A stretch of DNA of 64,000 nt from Rickettsia typhi (GTDB lineage: Bacteria; Pseudomonadota; Alphaproteobacteria; Rickettsiales; Deianiraeaceae): NCBI GenBank assembly GCA_945881985.1, contig CAMCVL010000002.1, positions 124,001 to 188,000 on the forward strand, read 5' to 3'. The position numbers were made by a program, and so were the translations under genes. Below are positions 15,263-34,869 of the stretch, piece by piece (the stretch's first letter is position 1; each line of letters opens with the position of its first letter). Below the pieces are notes generated by a model, which saw nothing but the letters and a program-made list of their open reading frames with translations, was not told the origin of the DNA and searched no databases.

Positions 15263-16270
15263 ATGAATGATAAAACAATAAGAATCGCCATTGACCTCAT
15301 GGGCGGCGACAAAGCACCTCAGTGTGTCATGGATGGACTAAGACTCTTTGACAAAAAAAATCGTGACAAAAACTTAAGCTATATACTAGTGGGTAATGCT
15401 GAGCTTAAGGCCAAAATTTGCAAAAAGGTGATGTCCCGTGCAAGATTTGTTGAAACCGATGAAGTTGTTAAATCCACAGACAAGCCATCTCTTGTAATAC
15501 GCAACAAAAAAACATCAATGGCCGTTTGCATAGCCTTGGTTGCCGATGGTGAGGCGGATGTTTGTATGTCATCTGGCAATACTGGTGCTTTAATGGCAAT
15601 GAGTAAGCTTTATTTTAAAACTATTGACGGCATAGACAGACCTGCAATTTGCACTATTATACCAACTATGAACGAGCCTTCAGTATTTTTGGACATGGGG
15701 GCTAGTCTATCATACACCAGCGACAACTTGGTGCAATATGCAATGATGGGATCGGTTTTTGCAAGTATTTTATTTGACATAAAAGAGCCAAAAATTGGTA
15801 TCATAAATGTTGGTAGCGAGGATAACAAGGGCAATGAGGCAATACAGCAAGCCGCCGAAACGCTCAAAGCCTCTAATTTAAAAGATAACTTTTGTGGCTA
15901 TGTTGAGGGTGACCAAGTAACCAAAGGTAATGTAAATGTTGTTGTGACGGATGGATTTACTGGAAATGTGGTTCTTAAAGCCATTGAAGGCTCCGCCAGA
16001 CTAATGAAGCACTTTGTAACGGCAGCATTTAAGGAATCTTTGATGGCAAAAATTGGTTATTTATTTGCAAAAAATAGCCTTAGCAAGATGCGTGATAAAA
16101 TAAATCCAAACAACTACAATGGTGCATTGTTTTTAGGTCTTAACAAAATTGCAATTAAAAGCCATGGCGGTGCCGATTTATACGGCATTGCAAATGCAAT
16201 TAAGGTTTCTTACACTTTGGCAAGTCAGGATGTTGTTGAAAAAATCAAGAGCAAAATGCAAAGCTCTTAG
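15263..16270 (+). CDS. plsX: phosphate acyltransferase PlsX
   Basis: IAIDLMGGDKAPQ, SSGNTGALMAM, EGDQVTKGNVNVVVTDGFTGNVVLK, GLNKIAIKSHGGAD. Confidence 0.97.
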   Translation: MNDKTIRIAIDLMGGDKAPQCVMDGLRLFDKKNRDKNLSYILVGNAELKAKICKKVMSRARFVETDEVVKSTDKPSLVIRNKKTSMAVCIALVADGEADVCMSSGNTGALMAMSKLYFKTIDGIDRPAICTIIPTMNEPSVFLDMGASLSYTSDNLVQYAMMGSVFASILFDIKEPKIGIINVGSEDNKGNEAIQQAAETLKASNLKDNFCGYVEGDQVTKGNVNVVVTDGFTGNVVLKAIEGSARLMKHFVTAAFKESLMAKIGYLFAKNSLSKMRDKINPNNYNGALFLGLNKIAIKSHGGADLYGIANAIKVSYTLASQDVVEKIKSKMQSS

Positions 16271-17438: not shown

Positions 17439-18215
17439 ATGATAAACGCAAAGTACTTTAAGGAGTATAGAGAATTGCTTGGCTTTGGCAATCAAAACAA
17501 TGTAAAAGCTTTTTTTGGAGCTAAAGATATTATTCCAGCTTTTGACTATAATTATGTTGAAACATTAAATATTAGAATTTGCGATATTATTAAACGCATA
17601 AATGACATAGTTCACGACAGCATTAAGGTTGACGATATATCATTATTTCTTGAAAATAGGTTAACAAATGTCTTTAAAACGCTAAAGAATAACGACATTT
17701 TGTTAAAATTAAATAATCAAGGTCGCAGACCTGAAGAAGTTTATTTTTCTTGGATGCGTGGCTTTGTTGTTTCGGCTTATTTTTTAAAGTCAATCGGTAC
17801 TGTCTTTGGTGTAAATAAAGATAAAATTACCACGATTGGCGATGATGATTTTTTAAACATTGAAACATTTAAAAGAACTCCAAAAGCCGACTTGGAAATT
17901 GAACTATTTAATAATAAAAAAATTAGAATTGAAGTTCAATCAGGCTTTCAGGGTATTAATGACATCAGGCAACATAAAGTTTTAGAGTCCAGAAAGGTCA
18001 AAGATATAAGCGGCATATTGTCTATTGTGATACACTTTGATTTATTTAACGGACAAGTTGCTTTTGTTAGAATTGATGACATTGAAGACGATAATATAAA
18101 TTGGATAACCAGACAGCAAATGGAAGGTCAAACGGTTTTTAATATTGATCAAAATTACTTTTGTTGGAAAATAACAGATGTTCCGCCAAAAATTCAAAAT
18201 ATTTTATCTATTTAA
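17439..18215 (+). CDS. putative type II restriction endonuclease
   Basis: PKADLEIELFNNKKIRIEVQSGFQG resembles a PD-(D/E)XK-type core; overlaps and precedes a C5 methyltransferase. Confidence 0.7.
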   Translation: MINAKYFKEYRELLGFGNQNNVKAFFGAKDIIPAFDYNYVETLNIRICDIIKRINDIVHDSIKVDDISLFLENRLTNVFKTLKNNDILLKLNNQGRRPEEVYFSWMRGFVVSAYFLKSIGTVFGVNKDKITTIGDDDFLNIETFKRTPKADLEIELFNNKKIRIEVQSGFQGINDIRQHKVLESRKVKDISGILSIVIHFDLFNGQVAFVRIDDIEDDNINWITRQQMEGQTVFNIDQNYFCWKITDVPPKIQNILSI

Positions 18216-18216
18216 A

Positions 18217-19329
18217 ATGCCTAAGAAGATTAAGGTTGTTGATTTGTTTGCAGGGGTTGGAGGCTTGAGTTACGGTTTTGCTAAAGATGACAGATTTGAA
18301 ATAATAGCAGCAAACGAAATACTACCAAATATGGCAAAGGCATATCAGTTAAATCACAAAAACGTTAAAGTGTATTGTAAGGATATTAAAGATTTTGGGA
18401 TAGGGGACCTAAAGAAAGATTTTAATATTAATTCTGGAGATATTGACTTGATTGTGGGTGGTCCACCTTGCCAAGCTTATTCAACTGTTGGAAAAAGATT
18501 AATAGATGACCCTAGGGGCAAGTTGTTTCAAGAGTATTACAGGGTGTTAAAAGAGATAAATCCAAAAATCTTTCTTTTTGAAAATGTAAAAGGTCTTTTA
18601 TCAATGGAAAGTGGTGAATTGTTTAGTACGATTATAAAGTTATTTGAATCTTTAAATTACAATATTTCTTATAAGGTTTTAAATTCTGCCGATTTTGGAG
18701 TTCCGCAAATTAGAGAGAGAGTTATAATAATAGGAACCAAGCTTGATAGGCGGTTTATTTATCCAAAACCAACTCACTACAATAAAGAAGAATGTGGTTC
18801 AATTTTTGATAATCAATTAGAACCTTATTTAACACTTGCGGAAGCGATCAGTGATTTACCATTTATCAAATCTGGCGAAGAGGCTGTTGAGTACGCGACA
18901 GACCCAGTTAATGAATTTCAAAAATTGATGAGAAAGAATGCTTCATTAAAAATCAACGACCATAACGCACCAAAAAACAATGAAAACTTAATTAAAATAA
19001 TGGAAATTTTACCAGATGGCGGTACGCCGCAAGATTTACCTGAGGAATTGAGACCAAAAAGTGGATTTGCAAATACTTATTGTCGCCTGTGGTGGAACAG
19101 GCCAAGTACCACAATAACCAGAAACTTCAGCACTCCATCTTCCGCAAGGTGTATTCATCCAAAGGCCCCAAGACCTTTAACAACAAGGGAGGGTGCGAGG
19201 ATACAATGCTTTCCTGATGATTATATTTTTTACGGTTCAAGAAGTGATAAAAATTTACAAATAGGCAATGCCGTACCAACATTTCTTTCTGTGGCATTAA
19301 AAAACTCTATCTTGCAACACTTGAAATAG
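18217..19329 (+). CDS. DNA (cytosine-5)-methyltransferase (track start 18178; ATG at 18217 preferred)
   Basis: motif I DLFAGVGGLSYGF, IV GGPPCQAYS, VI ENVKGLLS, VIII QIRERVIIIG, X QIGNAVP. Confidence 0.95.
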   Translation: MPKKIKVVDLFAGVGGLSYGFAKDDRFEIIAANEILPNMAKAYQLNHKNVKVYCKDIKDFGIGDLKKDFNINSGDIDLIVGGPPCQAYSTVGKRLIDDPRGKLFQEYYRVLKEINPKIFLFENVKGLLSMESGELFSTIIKLFESLNYNISYKVLNSADFGVPQIRERVIIIGTKLDRRFIYPKPTHYNKEECGSIFDNQLEPYLTLAEAISDLPFIKSGEEAVEYATDPVNEFQKLMRKNASLKINDHNAPKNNENLIKIMEILPDGGTPQDLPEELRPKSGFANTYCRLWWNRPSTTITRNFSTPSSARCIHPKAPRPLTTREGARIQCFPDDYIFYGSRSDKNLQIGNAVPTFLSVALKNSILQHLK

Positions 19330-21200: not shown

Positions 21201-22775
21201 ATGCAAATCATTTTGAGTTCATTTGGTATAGGTAGCAGTTCTAAGCAGAGTGTGGACAGTCAAGATAATACGCTACCCAATTCTCAAGAAACAAAAGATT
21301 TTAACGAGGGAAAATTTTGGATTGTTAAAGATGTTACAAAGTACTACCTTGACCCAAACGATGTAAAGCAATATTACATTGGTAGCCTAGCCCTTGAAAA
21401 CATTAAAGTTTTTGACGATCAAAAAAAACAATATGTTCAAAACACAAGCGTGTTTAGTGGATTTGATCAATACGCACGAGATAGATCCTTTACAGGCCTT
21501 GTTGATTATTTTACCAAAGTAAAAGAAGCAGACTTTGAAAAAGGTCATAACTGGGTGCAAACTGTAACGCCAAGTATTTGGAGTGGACATAGCTATAACA
21601 AACGGTCCATTACAGGTAATGTTGCAACTCTGTTTGCAAACCAAGATGATAAGCAAGGTGCACAAGATTTTGCAAACAACATTATAACACTTTTTAACAA
21701 ATCTAGAGAACAAATTAAAACAAACTATAAAGACCACAATTCTTTGAGGCTTTCAAGATACTTATATAACTTATCCAATTTAGCTAGTATAGTGCCTGAT
21801 GTTTGGATGAATTTTATTAAAAAACACAAAGAATGGCTAGAAAAACACACTAGCTATAAAGATTTTTATAAACAGCATATTGATGTTGGCAATCAAATAG
21901 CTCAGCCAGAAATAATTAAGCGGCAAAATGTGAAACAAAATGCACGGGATATTCCTGGGGCACAAATTCTACAAACAGATGTAAAAACTTTAAATCAACA
22001 ACTGCAATATCAGAATCGTGATAACAAGGATACAGGTGTACAGCAACAAAAAATTAAAGTTTCTAATGAAAGCCAAACTGACTGCAATACAGCAACATCG
22101 CAAAATAAAGGCTTAAAACTTAATTTAAGTGACATACCAACAGATAGACAAACCTCCGCTTTGTTAAGCCGATCAATGCTACCAAGCAAATCAAACTCAC
22201 TAAAATCAAAATCTGCGACATATAGCATGCCAGCTTTTTTTCAAGAAGTCATTAAACAAAAGCAGGGAAATCTTGTAAGTAGCAAAAAATCCCAAAATCA
22301 ATCGTCAAAACTCATTGAAATGCCTGACAAATCCATTACTCAAACCCTGCAAGACACAAAAGTTAGTAACTACGATAAGTATCATGTACTAAAGCAAGAA
22401 GATAGTACGGGTAAAATACCACAAATATTTATCACAAAACTAGAGTTTAAAATTGCCGACAGTGAAAAACACAATGGTAAAATGAGAATATCCGTGGGCT
22501 ACGAGGCAAGCAATAAAGCACAAGTGCAAGGTTTAATTGATGCACTTAACAAAGTTGGGGTTGGCGCTGAAAAGGCTGATAATCCAGATTATGCAAATTG
22601 CATATACATAAAACCAAGCGATTTAGCTAAAGCATGGCAAACTTTGAGTAAAAAACAAGGATACGAGGCTTATCCAGCTAACCATGATAAAACTATAGAA
22701 GAGTTTTCCAAATGTGGATTGAAATCTGAGTGCATCACATCAAATATATCCACTGTAGCCAATCGGCTACATTAA
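21201..22775 (+). CDS. hypothetical protein, Q/N/S-rich central region
   Basis: 524-aa ORF on + strand, no recognised domain. Confidence 0.6.
   Translation: MQIILSSFGIGSSSKQSVDSQDNTLPNSQETKDFNEGKFWIVKDVTKYYLDPNDVKQYYIGSLALENIKVFDDQKKQYVQNTSVFSGFDQYARDRSFTGLVDYFTKVKEADFEKGHNWVQTVTPSIWSGHSYNKRSITGNVATLFANQDDKQGAQDFANNIITLFNKSREQIKTNYKDHNSLRLSRYLYNLSNLASIVPDVWMNFIKKHKEWLEKHTSYKDFYKQHIDVGNQIAQPEIIKRQNVKQNARDIPGAQILQTDVKTLNQQLQYQNRDNKDTGVQQQKIKVSNESQTDCNTATSQNKGLKLNLSDIPTDRQTSALLSRSMLPSKSNSLKSKSATYSMPAFFQEVIKQKQGNLVSSKKSQNQSSKLIEMPDKSITQTLQDTKVSNYDKYHVLKQEDSTGKIPQIFITKLEFKIADSEKHNGKMRISVGYEASNKAQVQGLIDALNKVGVGAEKADNPDYANCIYIKPSDLAKAWQTLSKKQGYEAYPANHDKTIEEFSKCGLKSECITSNISTVANRLH
22754..22771 (+). 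other. perfect hairpin (7-bp stem, 4-nt loop) overlapping the end of the preceding ORF
   Basis: TGTAGCC AATC GGCTACA. Confidence 0.6.
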
Positions 22776-23680: not shown

Positions 23681-24059
23681 AATTTATTATAAAAAACAAA
23701 TACATTAAACATCATTATTGCTTTATGGATAAAAGATTATCTAAAAGACAAATAAAGCTGGTAAAGCAATTAACGCAATAAAATATAATTAAACTAAAAA
23801 TAAAAGAGTCAAGTTTTTTGTGCATTTTTTATTTTTTTTGCAAAGTTTGCATCTAATTCTTACCTTGTATCTAAAATAGTAGATGTTTGTGGCGTATTCA
23901 ATAGAAACTTCAATGTTTCACAATCGGTTTAAATTTAATACTAATTTTGATTTTTACATTTTTTACACTTGAATTTGCTTTTTTAAAAATTACATTTATT
24001 TTACGGCGGCTGTGCTGCCTTAAGTAAAATTTTTATTTTATTATTTTTTGTTTGCCATT

Positions 24060-24365
24060 ATGAGTATCAATGTTAAACCTTTACACGACAAAGTGATTGT
24101 TAAACTTATTGAGGCCGAAACCAAAACAGCAGGCGGTATTATCATACCGGACACAGCAAAACAAAAACCACAAGAGGCAATTGTTGCTGCGGTTGGTGCT
24201 GGTAAAAAAACTGAGGATGGCAAGATTATTGCCTTGGATGTTAAAGTAGGCGACAGAGTGTATTTTGCAAAATGGGGCGGCACAGAGATTAAAGTTGACG
24301 GAGAGGATTACATAATTTTAAGCGAGAGCGACATTTTGGCGGTAAATTTAGCGGCAAAATCTTAG
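24060..24365 (+). CDS. groES: co-chaperonin GroES
   Basis: [57 protein letters not shown]. Confidence 0.97.
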
Positions 24366-24380
24366 TTTAAACTTAACCAT

Positions 24381-24414
24381 AGCCCTCCTATTTGTTTAGG
24401 CTGTAGGGCTTTTT
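24381..24414 (+). terminator. rho-independent terminator after groES
   Basis: AGCCCT CCTA tttgt TTAGG ctgt AGGGCT TTTT. Confidence 0.7.
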
Positions 24415-24439
24415 AAATAGGCTTGTTGCTGTAATAGTA

Positions 24440-25129
24440 ATGATAAAAATTTGCGGACTTACCAAAAAAACAGAGCTTGACCTTGTTTGCAGCCTGCATT
24501 TTGGCTTTGCAGGCTTTGTTTTGTATAGCAAATCCCCAAGATACATATCTATTGAAAGCCTAAACAAATTAGATTTACATCACGAGCAATATAAAAACAT
24601 CATCAAAACAGCCGTTTTTGTAAAACCAAGTAAAGATGATATTAAGCAAGCGGTATCTGCGGGCATTGATGCGGTTCAGCTACACGGGGGTGAAGGCTTG
24701 CTTTGCACTCTAAGATTGCAAAAATTTTTGCGACAAAAGCATCCTAGTATTTTGCTAATAAAAGCCTTTGGCGTTAAGGGCGGTGTGGGGCTTTTTTTAA
24801 ATTTGTTTTTGATGAAAATATTGCAAAAAAAAGTAGATTATTTTTTACTAGACGCCCCCTCAAAGCAACACGGCGGCACTGGGCAAAGCTTTAATTGGCA
24901 ATTGCTTGATAATAAAATTTTTAAATTCTTCTTTAAAATAGCAATTGGCAAAACCCCATTTTTTATCTCCGGCGGAATCAGCGAAAGCAATATACAAAAA
25001 GCCTTAAGATACAGCAACTTTGTTGATTTGTCATCTGGGGTTGAGTTAAGCAGGGGCGTTAAAAGTGAGGCAAAAATTATATCTTTGGCAAAATTTTTAC
25101 AAGATTTAAGTTTATTAAAAGATAAGTAA
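24440..25129 (+). CDS. trpF: phosphoribosylanthranilate isomerase
   Basis: IKICGLT, GFVLYSKSPRYI, VQLHGGE, DYFLLDAPSKQHGGTGQSFNW, FISGGIS. Confidence 0.95.
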   Translation: MIKICGLTKKTELDLVCSLHFGFAGFVLYSKSPRYISIESLNKLDLHHEQYKNIIKTAVFVKPSKDDIKQAVSAGIDAVQLHGGEGLLCTLRLQKFLRQKHPSILLIKAFGVKGGVGLFLNLFLMKILQKKVDYFLLDAPSKQHGGTGQSFNWQLLDNKIFKFFFKIAIGKTPFFISGGISESNIQKALRYSNFVDLSSGVELSRGVKSEAKIISLAKFLQDLSLLKDK

Positions 25130-25821
25130 TGATGAATTTAAAAGCTGAGGATTTAAAGCTAACTAAAGCCAATCTGGTAAAAAAATTAAAAGCAGAGTTT
25201 TTAGTTAACGGCGATACTGCTGAATACTTTGTGGAAGATTTCTTTAATTACATAATCAGCCAACCGGCATTTGAGCTTGTGGGTATCGGCAGGTTTGAAA
25301 AAAGGCAAAAACGCAGTTCAAATTTATTGCAACTTAAAACTGCAACAGATTTGTCAAAAACTACACTTGCAAAATACAAAGTTTGTTTTAAAACTTTTAA
25401 GTCCCTTAAGCAACAAATTTATGCAGAGGGCGGTTTTATTAATGCGGAGGTTATGGCAAAAAGCAAAGAAACTGGCAATATGCCGATAGGCGAAGTTGCA
25501 AAACTTTTAGGCGTTGAGGCTCACACAATAAGATTTTGGACAAAAGAATTTGAGCCCCATATCGCTTATACAATTGGCAAAGGCGAGCGTAAGTATTACT
25601 CTCTTAGCTCGGTGGAAGTGTTTAAAAAAATTCAGGAACTCATTCATGTTAAAGGCGTTAAAATTAGATTTATCAAGGAAAATAACCTCTTGTTTCAAAA
25701 CTACGCACCGCAAAGCCTTGCTAGCCAAGATTTACCCTCTGGCAATGAGGCAAAAATAAATGATGTCTTAAGTCAAATATCCACCGAAATTCAAAAGCTT
25801 ACTGCAAAGCTTAAGTCTTAA
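25129..25821 (+). CDS. fusion ORF: IHF/HU-like N-terminal domain plus MerR-family HTH C-terminal domain
   Basis: N-term LTKANLVKKLKAEF...FVEDFFNYIISQPAFELVGIGRFEKRQKRSSN...YKVCFKTFKSLKQQI (IHF-like); C-term MPIGEVAKLLGVEAHTIRFWTKEFEPHIAYTIGKGERKYYSLSSVEVFKKIQELIHVKGVKIRF (MerR). Confidence 0.85.
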   Translation: MMNLKAEDLKLTKANLVKKLKAEFLVNGDTAEYFVEDFFNYIISQPAFELVGIGRFEKRQKRSSNLLQLKTATDLSKTTLAKYKVCFKTFKSLKQQIYAEGGFINAEVMAKSKETGNMPIGEVAKLLGVEAHTIRFWTKEFEPHIAYTIGKGERKYYSLSSVEVFKKIQELIHVKGVKIRFIKENNLLFQNYAPQSLASQDLPSGNEAKINDVLSQISTEIQKLTAKLKS

Positions 25822-26786: not shown

Positions 26787-29036
26787 ATGTATAATGAAGT
26801 TGAAACTTTTAAGTATATTGTTTTTATTTTTTCATTATTTTTTGCAATTAAAATGATGCAGGCAAATAAAAAGCAGTTCTTTATTATCAGAGCTACGGAA
26901 TATGCCTTATCCTTTTTGGAATCTGCTTTGGACCTTGATATAAGAGTAAATTTTGAAGACCAAATACCCCAAAATCGCCCAGTGCTTTTTGTTGCAAATC
27001 ACTTTACTCGTGCCGAGACTTTATTGGTGCCGCATATTTTAAAAAAATATATATCAGTAATGCCTCGCAGCCTTGCAGACAAAGGGCTGTTTGCTAGCAA
27101 TTTTTTAAAAGACTATCTTGCAAAAGCAAATGTAATATCAACTGGCGACCCAAAGAGAGACGATATAATTGTTGCCGATCTTGTAAGCGGCGATGAGCCT
27201 TGGATTATCTACCCAGAGGGCAAGATGCTAAAAGATAAGCTTGCAACCGAGATTGTTGATGGCGAAGAGCGTTTTGTTGCAAAAACTGGTGCGGCGGTGC
27301 TTGCTATTAAAGCCGAACAAAAAAGACTTAATCTTATTAAATCCTACTTAAAACAAAACCCCGATATAAAAAAACAAGACTTGCAAAATAAGGATTACAT
27401 AATTTTTGATGGGCAAAAAGTTGCAACCAGATCTCTTGCAATTGTTCCAATTTCAATTACCTATACGCCAATAAAGCCACAGCCAAACAGCCTTGAAACA
27501 AATATTATGAAGTTTATCAAAAAAACATCACCAAGGCTAAAAGAAGAAATAAGAATGGAAACATCTATCCTTTTAAACTCTACAATGGATATATACTTTA
27601 CAAGACCCATTGAAACAAGCGATTACATCACAAGTCAAGGCGTGATGAGTGCCTTACCTTTTTTAAATGTAACATCAAGAGAAAACTACGCAATTGACAA
27701 GCTACGCCACAAAGTTACAAAAGCAATGATGAAGCAAATTTACGACAAAACATTGATAAACATGGAGCATATTCTTGCCAGCACAATCTTTGAGCTTTTA
27801 AAACTTGGTAAAAATGAGATTAAAATACAAGACCTAAGCAGCATTTTACTTGTAAAATGCCAGATACTTGAAGATAGCTTTACCTCGTCTCACAGGCTTG
27901 ATGAGGCTCTTAAAAAAGGAGAAAATATTATTAAATCCGAGGAATTTAAAAGCGTTATAGATAACGCCATCTATCAAAATCTTTTACATCTTGATGGTAA
28001 TGTTATTAAATTTAACACCAATAATTTACTAGCCGAGCATCAAATACACGCAATCCGCACATCTAATATACTAAAAGTTTTTGATAATGAATTCAGTTAT
28101 TTTAAAAATATTAAAGCAAAACTTGCTAAGGTTAGTTCAACATCTTTAAAACACCTCAACATGGCTGCTGCAGACATTTTAATTAAGCACGATGCAGAGA
28201 ACTTTGAAAATGATTACGCAAACTATGCCATACAAGGCGAAAGTAAGCCAAAAAACATCTGTAAGCCTTTTTTGTTAAGGGCAAAAAATGGCTCAGATGA
28301 GCTTGGTATTGTTTTGTCGCACGGTTATAAATCTGCCCCAGAGGAAGTGCGTGAACTAGCTCAGCATCTAAGCAATAACAATATAAATGTTTATTGCGTT
28401 AGGTTAAAAGGGCATGGCACAGCGGCACGCAACATGCAGCACATTAATTACACAGACTGGATTGACAGTTTTGAAGCTGGCTACAACATAATAAGCCGTG
28501 TTGCTAAAAAAGTGTTTGTTGGAGGTTTTTCAACAGGGGGGCTTGCCTCAATTGCCTTTACAAACAGGCTTAAAACTCAGCTTGGGGCAGCGGGTGGCAT
28601 TTGCGGGATAGTATCGATTAACTCCGCCCTTAGAATAGGTGATATTAAATTTAAATTTGCCCGTGTTGCAAAGCTTGGTATTGACTTAGTTAATAAATTT
28701 AAATCTGGCGAGGCAAAGATACACGATTATGTTGTTGATAAACCCGAAAATCCTCACATCAACTACTCAAAAAATTACCTGCACGGACTAAGTGAACTTG
28801 CTTTACTTATAGAGCATTGCGACAAAAATCTTGAAAACATATCCGAGCAGATACTTGTGATACAAGGCTCAAACGACCCAGTAGTTGACCCAGTTAGTGG
28901 AGATATTATTTTTAACAAGGTTAGCTCAATGTCAAAAAGTCTTTACAAGCCACAAAGAAGCCGTCATGTTATCATAAGGGGGGATGGCTCGCAGGAAGTT
29001 TTTGAAAAAATCACAAACTTCATTCGCAGCGTCTAA
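26787..29036 (+). CDS. fusion: PlsC/LPLAT-like acyltransferase domain plus alpha/beta hydrolase (esterase/lipase-like) domain
   Basis: VLFVANHFTRAETLL and WIIYPEGKM (LPLAT motifs); GIVLSHGYKSAPEEV, VRLKGHG, VFVGGFSTGGLASIAF, VIQGSNDPVVDP, SRHVI (hydrolase). Confidence 0.85.
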   Translation: MYNEVETFKYIVFIFSLFFAIKMMQANKKQFFIIRATEYALSFLESALDLDIRVNFEDQIPQNRPVLFVANHFTRAETLLVPHILKKYISVMPRSLADKGLFASNFLKDYLAKANVISTGDPKRDDIIVADLVSGDEPWIIYPEGKMLKDKLATEIVDGEERFVAKTGAAVLAIKAEQKRLNLIKSYLKQNPDIKKQDLQNKDYIIFDGQKVATRSLAIVPISITYTPIKPQPNSLETNIMKFIKKTSPRLKEEIRMETSILLNSTMDIYFTRPIETSDYITSQGVMSALPFLNVTSRENYAIDKLRHKVTKAMMKQIYDKTLINMEHILASTIFELLKLGKNEIKIQDLSSILLVKCQILEDSFTSSHRLDEALKKGENIIKSEEFKSVIDNAIYQNLLHLDGNVIKFNTNNLLAEHQIHAIRTSNILKVFDNEFSYFKNIKAKLAKVSSTSLKHLNMAAADILIKHDAENFENDYANYAIQGESKPKNICKPFLLRAKNGSDELGIVLSHGYKSAPEEVRELAQHLSNNNINVYCVRLKGHGTAARNMQHINYTDWIDSFEAGYNIISRVAKKVFVGGFSTGGLASIAFTNRLKTQLGAAGGICGIVSINSALRIGDIKFKFARVAKLGIDLVNKFKSGEAKIHDYVVDKPENPHINYSKNYLHGLSELALLIEHCDKNLENISEQILVIQGSNDPVVDPVSGDIIFNKVSSMSKSLYKPQRSRHVIIRGDGSQEVFEKITNFIRSV

Positions 29037-32685: not shown

Positions 32686-33084
32686 TTGCTGCTTGCTTTT
32701 TGGCAAGCGTGTAAAATAAAATTATTTTTATGGGTCTTATTTTGTGCTTTTATGCTTAAGCTTGCATCACTTAAATCCTTTGCTAAATTTGCCTTAGTTT
32801 TTGCATCATCCTTGTTATTTAGCCAGTTTGCCATGGCGACAAATAGCACCGGTGTATTATGTACTGCAATTAACCTTTTTACCGGTAATATTGGTAAAAT
32901 GCTTGCTATTTTTGCCTTAATTGCCCTTGGGGTATCGTTTTTTATGGGTAAAATATCTTGGGGTACTGTGCTTGCTGTTGCCTTTGGTATGGCATGTATT
33001 TTTGGCGGTTCAACAATTGTTAATAAACTTGCTGGTGGTGGCATGACTTGTGCTATTACCAACACTGATGCTACAGCTTTATAG
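32686..33084 (+). CDS. TrbC/VirB2-like pilin subunit
   Basis: signal-peptide-like N-term, LCTAINLFTGNIGKMLAIFALIALGVSFFMGKISWGTVLAVAFGMACIFGGSTIV two-TM VirB2 pattern. Confidence 0.75.
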   Translation: MLLAFWQACKIKLFLWVLFCAFMLKLASLKSFAKFALVFASSLLFSQFAMATNSTGVLCTAINLFTGNIGKMLAIFALIALGVSFFMGKISWGTVLAVAFGMACIFGGSTIVNKLAGGGMTCAITNTDATAL

Positions 33085-33982: not shown

Positions 33983-34869
33983 ATGGATAAAAATCAAGAG
34001 AGAGAGAGTTTATTATTAAGCCTGATTTTGCAAATGGTTTAGAATTTAAAAAATGTGAAGATGTTTTTAAAAGATTTAAGCCATATTTTACCAATCACTT
34101 TGTAAGCAAACACGATATGGACGCTGAATCATTTAGAATTCAATCCTGTATTACATTTTGCAAAAAATATTCCATTGAACATGAAGTGTCCTACAAGCAG
34201 CCAACTGTTGGATGCAAAGAAGTTATTCAATATAGATACAATCCACAAAAAAAAGACTTTGGAATAGATTTACAAGATGAGCAAAAATCTATCATTTTTA
34301 AAAAAAACAAAGATATTTTTTGCTATATAACTCCAGCTAATTGTGACGCTGTATGTCCAAAAAAATCATCTAAATTAGATATTACAAAATATGGATTAAT
34401 TCCTTATACCGTTAATCCTGCAACAATACTGGGGATCTTGCATAATGAAGCAAAAAAAGATGACTTAACGCTTCATCTAGTCGTAAATCCTTTGATTGCA
34501 AAAGATGGACTTGTCTTTAATAATTACGGATCGAGAATTTTAAGTGTTTGTTATAATGGCAAGCAAGTCTTTGATGCTATAATTAAAGAGGCAAGCGACC
34601 TTGGTATTGATGTTGAGATTTCTTCTGATAAATTTATCAAAGCAGATAATATAGATCTATCTGGTTTTAACGAATCTATAATTTTTGACAGTTCTTCAGA
34701 TGGAACAAGTTACTCAAATATGCTTTCGTTAAGTAGTTTTGAAAATTCAACCAAGAGTTTGAATTCTTCAAGTCGCATTTTAAGCGATAACCAACAAGAA
34801 ACAAAGCAAAAACATTGGTCATCTTGTAGTCAGCTTTTGGCAGGTGACCATGACAGATTATATAGGTAA
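33983..34869 (+). pseudogene. hypothetical ORF (track 34117..34869) whose upstream frame is interrupted at an (AG)6 tract
   Basis: ATG at 33983 MDKNQERE then AG repeat 33997-34008; removing one AG unit joins it to EFIIKPDFANGLEFKKCEDVFKRFKPYFTNHFVSKHDMDAESF... Confidence 0.5.

What the first reader, a model, noticed from the sequence alone, without database searches (positions are those of the whole stretch)
25129..25821. IHF-like domain fused to a MerR-type regulator
One ORF carries an HU/IHF-like fold (LTKANLVKKLKAEF...VGIGRFEKRQKR) and a MerR HTH (MPIGEVAKLLGVEAHTIRFWTKEFEP). In many alphaproteobacteria ihfA and a merR gene are neighbours downstream of plsX-fabH. Here they appear fused and relocated next to trpF, 9 kb from plsX. 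The IHF part also lacks an obvious PxTG-like arm motif, suggesting changed DNA bending. The combined architecture would couple DNA bending with sequence-specific recognition.
Basis: partly seen in the sequence, partly recalled or inferred. Interest (0 to 1): 0.72.

Follow-up and report, generated by a model that had tools for sequence, protein, structure and literature searches.

The report
IHF-alpha fused to a ZapT-like MerR
In a small alphaproteobacterial genus, two neighbouring genes, one for a DNA-bending protein (IHF-alpha) and one for a MerR-type protein of a kind that in Caulobacter ties the chromosome terminus to the division ring, have merged into one gene, which suggests that the two proteins normally act together on DNA.

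Summary
ORF 25129-25821 is one 230-aa frame with an HU/IHF domain (11-97) and a MerR winged HTH (118-184). It is not a sequencing slip: a second species of the genus carries the same fusion (52% identical), also downstream of trpF, and the IHF half evolves under constraint like trpF. Of 344 genomes of the order and 385 drawn from the class, only these two show the fusion. Elsewhere ihfA and merR are adjacent but separate (37 of 40 loci read). In sister genus g6 they lie 4-7 nt apart in another frame, and other same-family genera have a lone MerR. The genome has no second MerR, no canonical IHF-alpha and no IHF-beta, only one HU. The GRNPKT arm tip is lost, but the position of the intercalating proline holds Leu (fusions) or Phe (g6), so bending is altered rather than excluded. 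The merR beside ihfA is, in Caulobacter, zapT, a terminus-binding protein that links DNA to the Z-ring via ZauP-ZapA. Best reading: a ZapT-type nucleoid organiser with its IHF-alpha partner built in, a two-headed DNA binder. FtsZ is present, ZapA weak, ZauP not found, so the divisome link is unproven. A new variant of a known kind.

The parts
25129..25821 (+). ihfA-zapT-type fusion gene, 230 aa
   Evidence: single ORF; same-genus orthologue L063:2983-3612, 209 aa, 52% identical
25159..25419 (+). HU/IHF-alpha domain, residues 11-97
   Evidence: PF00216, NCBIfam IHF-alpha best, AF2 fold and Foldseek
25309..25374 (+). beta-arm, residues 61-82; tip lacks GRNPKT; Leu69 (25333-25335) sits where every canonical relative has the intercalating Pro
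   Evidence: column 69 is L,L (fusions), F,F,F (g6), P in all 12 canonical rows
25420..25479 (+). linker, residues 98-117, with in-frame ATG (Met109, 25453) near the position of the ancestral merR start
   Evidence: junction sequences of both fusions and of g6
25480..25680 (+). MerR winged helix-turn-helix, residues 118-184
   Evidence: PF13411 3.5e-14; Foldseek best RacA, GlnR, CueR and other MerR proteins
25744..25815 (+). C-terminal helix, residues 206-229, probable dimerisation coiled coil
   Evidence: AF2 helix 206-229, pLDDT about 85; dimerisation role inferred
24440..25129 (+). trpF, overlaps the fusion start by 1 nt (TAATG); probable cotranscription
   Evidence: PF00697 1.8e-26
24048..24365 (+). 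groES, upstream of trpF
   Evidence: PF00166 2.2e-36
15263..16270 (+). plsX, the ancestral neighbourhood marker, now 8.9 kb away
   Evidence: PF02504 4.5e-95

Best explanation
The gene is a true, inherited fusion of ihfA with the MerR-type gene that follows it in an operon across this order and class; in Caulobacter that MerR gene is zapT. Shown: both domains, one frame, two species, constraint on both halves, sole MerR and sole IHF-alpha-like domain found in the genome, no IHF-beta found, altered arm tip. Inferred: the IHF half pairs with itself (IHF-beta being absent) or with HU, the MerR half pairs through its C-terminal helix, and the protein acts as a two-headed nucleoid organiser that grips or bridges DNA at two places, with the IHF half giving DNA affinity or shape preference that ZapT otherwise gets from separate IHF. 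The likely task is chromosome or terminus organisation rather than control of one promoter; a link to the divisome is possible but not supported at the ZauP step.
For: Domains and fold. Second species with the same fusion. Constraint: IHF half dN 0.48, dS 2.1 against trpF 0.50, 1.61; MerR half dN 0.20, dS 2.71. Ancestral separate pair: ihfA-merR adjacent in 37 of 40 loci read, fabH-ihfA-merR in G064, frr-ihfA*-merR-pgpA in g6 with the ORFs 4-7 nt apart in another frame. MerR tree: the family one clade (100/93), fusions sisters (99/95), g6 apart. Copy counts. FtsZ present, ZapA-like weak. ZapT in the ihfA-zapT operon: PMC7188993; ZapT-ZauP-ZapA: PMC7858052. Closest NCBIfam and PDB relatives of the MerR half include RacA, a chromosome anchor.
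Against: ZauP (taken here as DUF4164) was not found in the genus, though that model finds only 18 of 90 relatives. ZapA scores just under cut-off. Orthology to ZapT rests on synteny and family, not on a comparison with the Caulobacter protein, which was not available. No dimer model could be made. The C-terminal tail evolves loosely (pN/pS 1.1), which is odd if it binds a fixed partner.
Confidence: 0.55

Rival explanations
1. An ordinary MerR transcription regulator that carries a decaying, functionless IHF remnant at its N-terminus.
For: Arm motif lost; same-family genera g2-g5 have the MerR without an IHF domain, so the domain is dispensable there; IHF half less conserved than the MerR half (49 against 72%).
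Against: The IHF half keeps its frame, length, fold core (KLTK, GxGxF, AKYKxxFKTFKS) and a dN/dS like trpF over deep divergence.
Confidence: 0.25
2. Two products from one frame: the fusion plus a free MerR made from the in-frame ATG at Met109.
For: A Met is kept at the junction in both fusions (M109; KIM in G001), close to the start of MerR in the split relatives. GGAGG lies 2 nt before it in the window genome.
Against: The 2-nt spacing is too short for a usual ribosome site, G001 lacks it, and the genes of this window that were looked at generally show no such site.
Confidence: 0.15
3. Assembly or sequencing error that removed a stop codon.
For: Both genomes are draft assemblies; g6 needs only a one-base shift to fuse.
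Against: A second species, in its own assembly and at 52% identity, has the same continuous frame.
Confidence: 0.02

Closest known systems
Caulobacter crescentus IhfA-ZapT operon (PMC7188993, PMC7858052)
   Same: IHF-alpha gene followed by a MerR-type gene; one MerR wHTH followed by a C-terminal region
   Different: here one polypeptide; IHF arm tip changed; no IHF-beta found; ZauP not found; next to trpF
IHF-alpha (IhfA/HimA, PDB 1ihf, 8flj)
   Same: fold and best family match
   Different: far below the equivalog cut-off (19.7 against 111 bits); Pro at the arm tip replaced by Leu; no IHF-beta partner found in the genome
RacA of Bacillus (PDB 5i44)
   Same: MerR-type wHTH used to organise or anchor the chromosome; best structure match of the MerR half
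   Different: no HU/IHF domain; sequence match weak (22.6 bits, cut-off 165)
HU-HIG (PF18291: HU domain fused to wHTH, Ig or Gly-rich motif)
   Same: precedent for HU-domain fusions
   Different: only a marginal match (15 bits in G001, cut-off 26.2); different HU clade and a different partner domain

Membership tests
HU/IHF superfamily | PF00216 profile match over its gathering score | tested here: met
   24.3 bits for residues 1-117, 23.7 in the genome search; full-length protein 21.1, just under 22.4
HU/IHF superfamily | helix-helix-beta sheet-arm-helix fold | tested here: met
   AF2 and Foldseek; E-values modest
IHF-alpha (equivalog) | NCBIfam NF001401 cut-off 111 bits | tested here: not met
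   19.7 bits; derived from IHF-alpha by synteny and best match, not a member by score
IHF-alpha (equivalog) | intercalating Pro in the (R)NPKT arm tip | tested here: not met
   Leu69
IHF-alpha (equivalog) | IHF-beta partner in the genome | tested here: not met
   only one other PF00216 gene, scoring as HU/IHF-alpha rather than IHF-beta; genome 89% complete
MerR family | MerR_1 wHTH over cut-off | tested here: met
   53.1 bits against 21.6
ZapT | MerR gene paired with ihfA | tested here: met
   fused here; split pair in g6 and in the order
ZapT | coexists with zapA and zauP | tested here: inconclusive
   ZapA weak, just under cut-off; DUF4164, assumed to be ZauP, not found
ZapT | binds terminus DNA and ZauP | not testable with these tools
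   needs ChIP and pull-down

The most novel reading that the evidence does not exclude
A single-chain, IHF-beta-independent DNA organiser in which an IHF fold with a Leu wedge pre-shapes DNA for a ZapT-type head, showing that IhfA and ZapT are physical partners wherever their genes stand together.
Probability: 0.3. Interest if true: 0.7.

Novelty: new variant of a known kind. Interest (0 to 1): 0.5.

Why it matters
zapT follows ihfA in many Proteobacteria, and no reason for the pairing came up in the papers searched here. A fusion of two operon neighbours is a classic hint that the products act together, and the ZapT authors themselves suggested that DNA bending might be needed for ZapT to find the terminus. 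The fusion, with its split g6 relatives, makes that testable in Caulobacter.

Tried and rejected
A search of viral contigs with the fusion found no relative. Phage IHF proteins served only to deepen the alignment. A joint alignment of both halves was misaligned by MAFFT and dropped for two separate folds; the full-length model is poor in the IHF half. PADLOC gave only a weak MerR-type match, mad1, read as generic. A literature search for the fusion found none in the held library. Ribosome-site analysis of the internal start was uninformative.

Full report
What is there. The window holds one open frame, 25129-25821 (+), of 230 aa. Its N-terminal 97 residues match the HU/IHF family and its residues 118-184 the MerR wHTH. 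The HU/IHF match is weak but real: 24.3 bits on its own, best NCBIfam family IHF-alpha, a predicted HU/IHF fold with a loose arm whose top 33 structural matches are HU or IHF proteins or close kin (E-values no better than 2e-3). The MerR half matches RacA, GlnR, CueR and other MerR structures.

Is it real? A second species of the genus (G001, public contig CAMDBF010000001.1, labelled 'Rickettsia typhi' by its depositors, a label I doubt) has the same fusion, 52% identical, also downstream of trpF, with one extra ORF between. Synonymous sites are near saturation, yet the IHF half has dN 0.48 against dS 2.1, like the trpF control (0.50, 1.61); the MerR half is tighter (0.20, 2.71). So the joined frame has been kept through deep divergence.

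How it arose. In the order and class, ihfA and a merR gene stand next to each other: 37 of 40 loci read, chosen mostly because a pair was likely, so this is not an unbiased frequency. In sister genus g6 the two genes lie between genes I read as frr and pgpA, 4-7 nt apart and in another frame, and their IHF protein already lacks the GRNPKT arm. The family's MerR proteins form one clade (100/93), the fusions are sisters (99/95) and g6 stands apart. Other genera of the family have a lone MerR. Either the fusion formed in the window's genus, or it formed earlier and other genera lost the IHF part; these data do not decide. The fusion was seen in none of the other genomes scanned: 344 of the order and 385 drawn from the class (the printed match lists are truncated at weak hits, and E-values are per genome).

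The arm. Correct, but the arm is present in length, and the position held by the intercalating Pro in all 12 canonical relatives aligned is Leu in both fusions and Phe in the three g6 proteins. From general knowledge, phage SPO1 TF1, an HU relative, carries a Phe at its arm tip; I could not check this here. So an altered wedge is as likely as a lost one. Alignment in this loop is uncertain, most of all for G001, which has a 3-residue gap there.

Partners. The genome has one other HU/IHF-family gene, which scores as HU or IHF-alpha and has a normal PSTG arm, and no second MerR. No genome of the family has more than two HU/IHF genes, while most others of the order have three or more. IHF-beta is therefore probably gone, with the caveat of 89% completeness. 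FtsZ is present. A ZapA-like protein scores just below cut-off. DUF4164, which lies beside zapA in several relatives and which I take for ZauP from memory, was not found in the genus.

Function. In Caulobacter the merR after ihfA is zapT; ZapT binds the terminus region and joins ZauP and ZapA at the Z-ring (PMC7188993, PMC7858052). The authors used ihfA adjacency to recognise ZapT homologues, the same criterion that applies here. I therefore favour a nucleoid-organising, two-headed DNA binder over a promoter regulator. Shown: sequence, predicted fold, conservation, genomic setting. Inferred: dimerisation, DNA bridging, role at the terminus. The divisome link is the weakest step.

Verdict. A new variant of a known pair, interesting mainly because the fusion hints that IhfA and ZapT work together.

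Noticed in passing
window 26787-29036 (+): 749-aa protein with an acyltransferase domain (PF01553) fused to an S33-type alpha/beta hydrolase (PF12146).
   Followed up: no
window 24048-25129 (+): groES is followed by trpF and the fusion, not by groEL, within the stretch read.
   Followed up: no
window 17439-19329 (+): A DNA cytosine methyltransferase-like ORF preceded by a 258-aa ORF that could be its restriction partner, between a ribonucleotide reductase-like ORF and a RecJ-like ORF; names from sequence reading only.
   Followed up: no
window 32686-33084 (+): 132-aa ORF that resembles a VirB2/TrbC-type pilin by eye, just upstream of an endonuclease III-like ORF.
   Followed up: no
window 21201-22775 (+) and 34117-34869 (+): ORFs of 524 and 250 aa with no Pfam match.
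   Followed up: no
L108:1977-2498 (G000 contig 3): 174-aa ZapA-like protein just under the Pfam cut-off, directly after an SDH-subunit-like gene; orthologue in G001 (L109:1863-2276, minus strand) in the same setting.
   Followed up: partly
L063:2127-2993: 288-aa ORF without Pfam match, between trpF and the fusion in the sister species.
   Followed up: no
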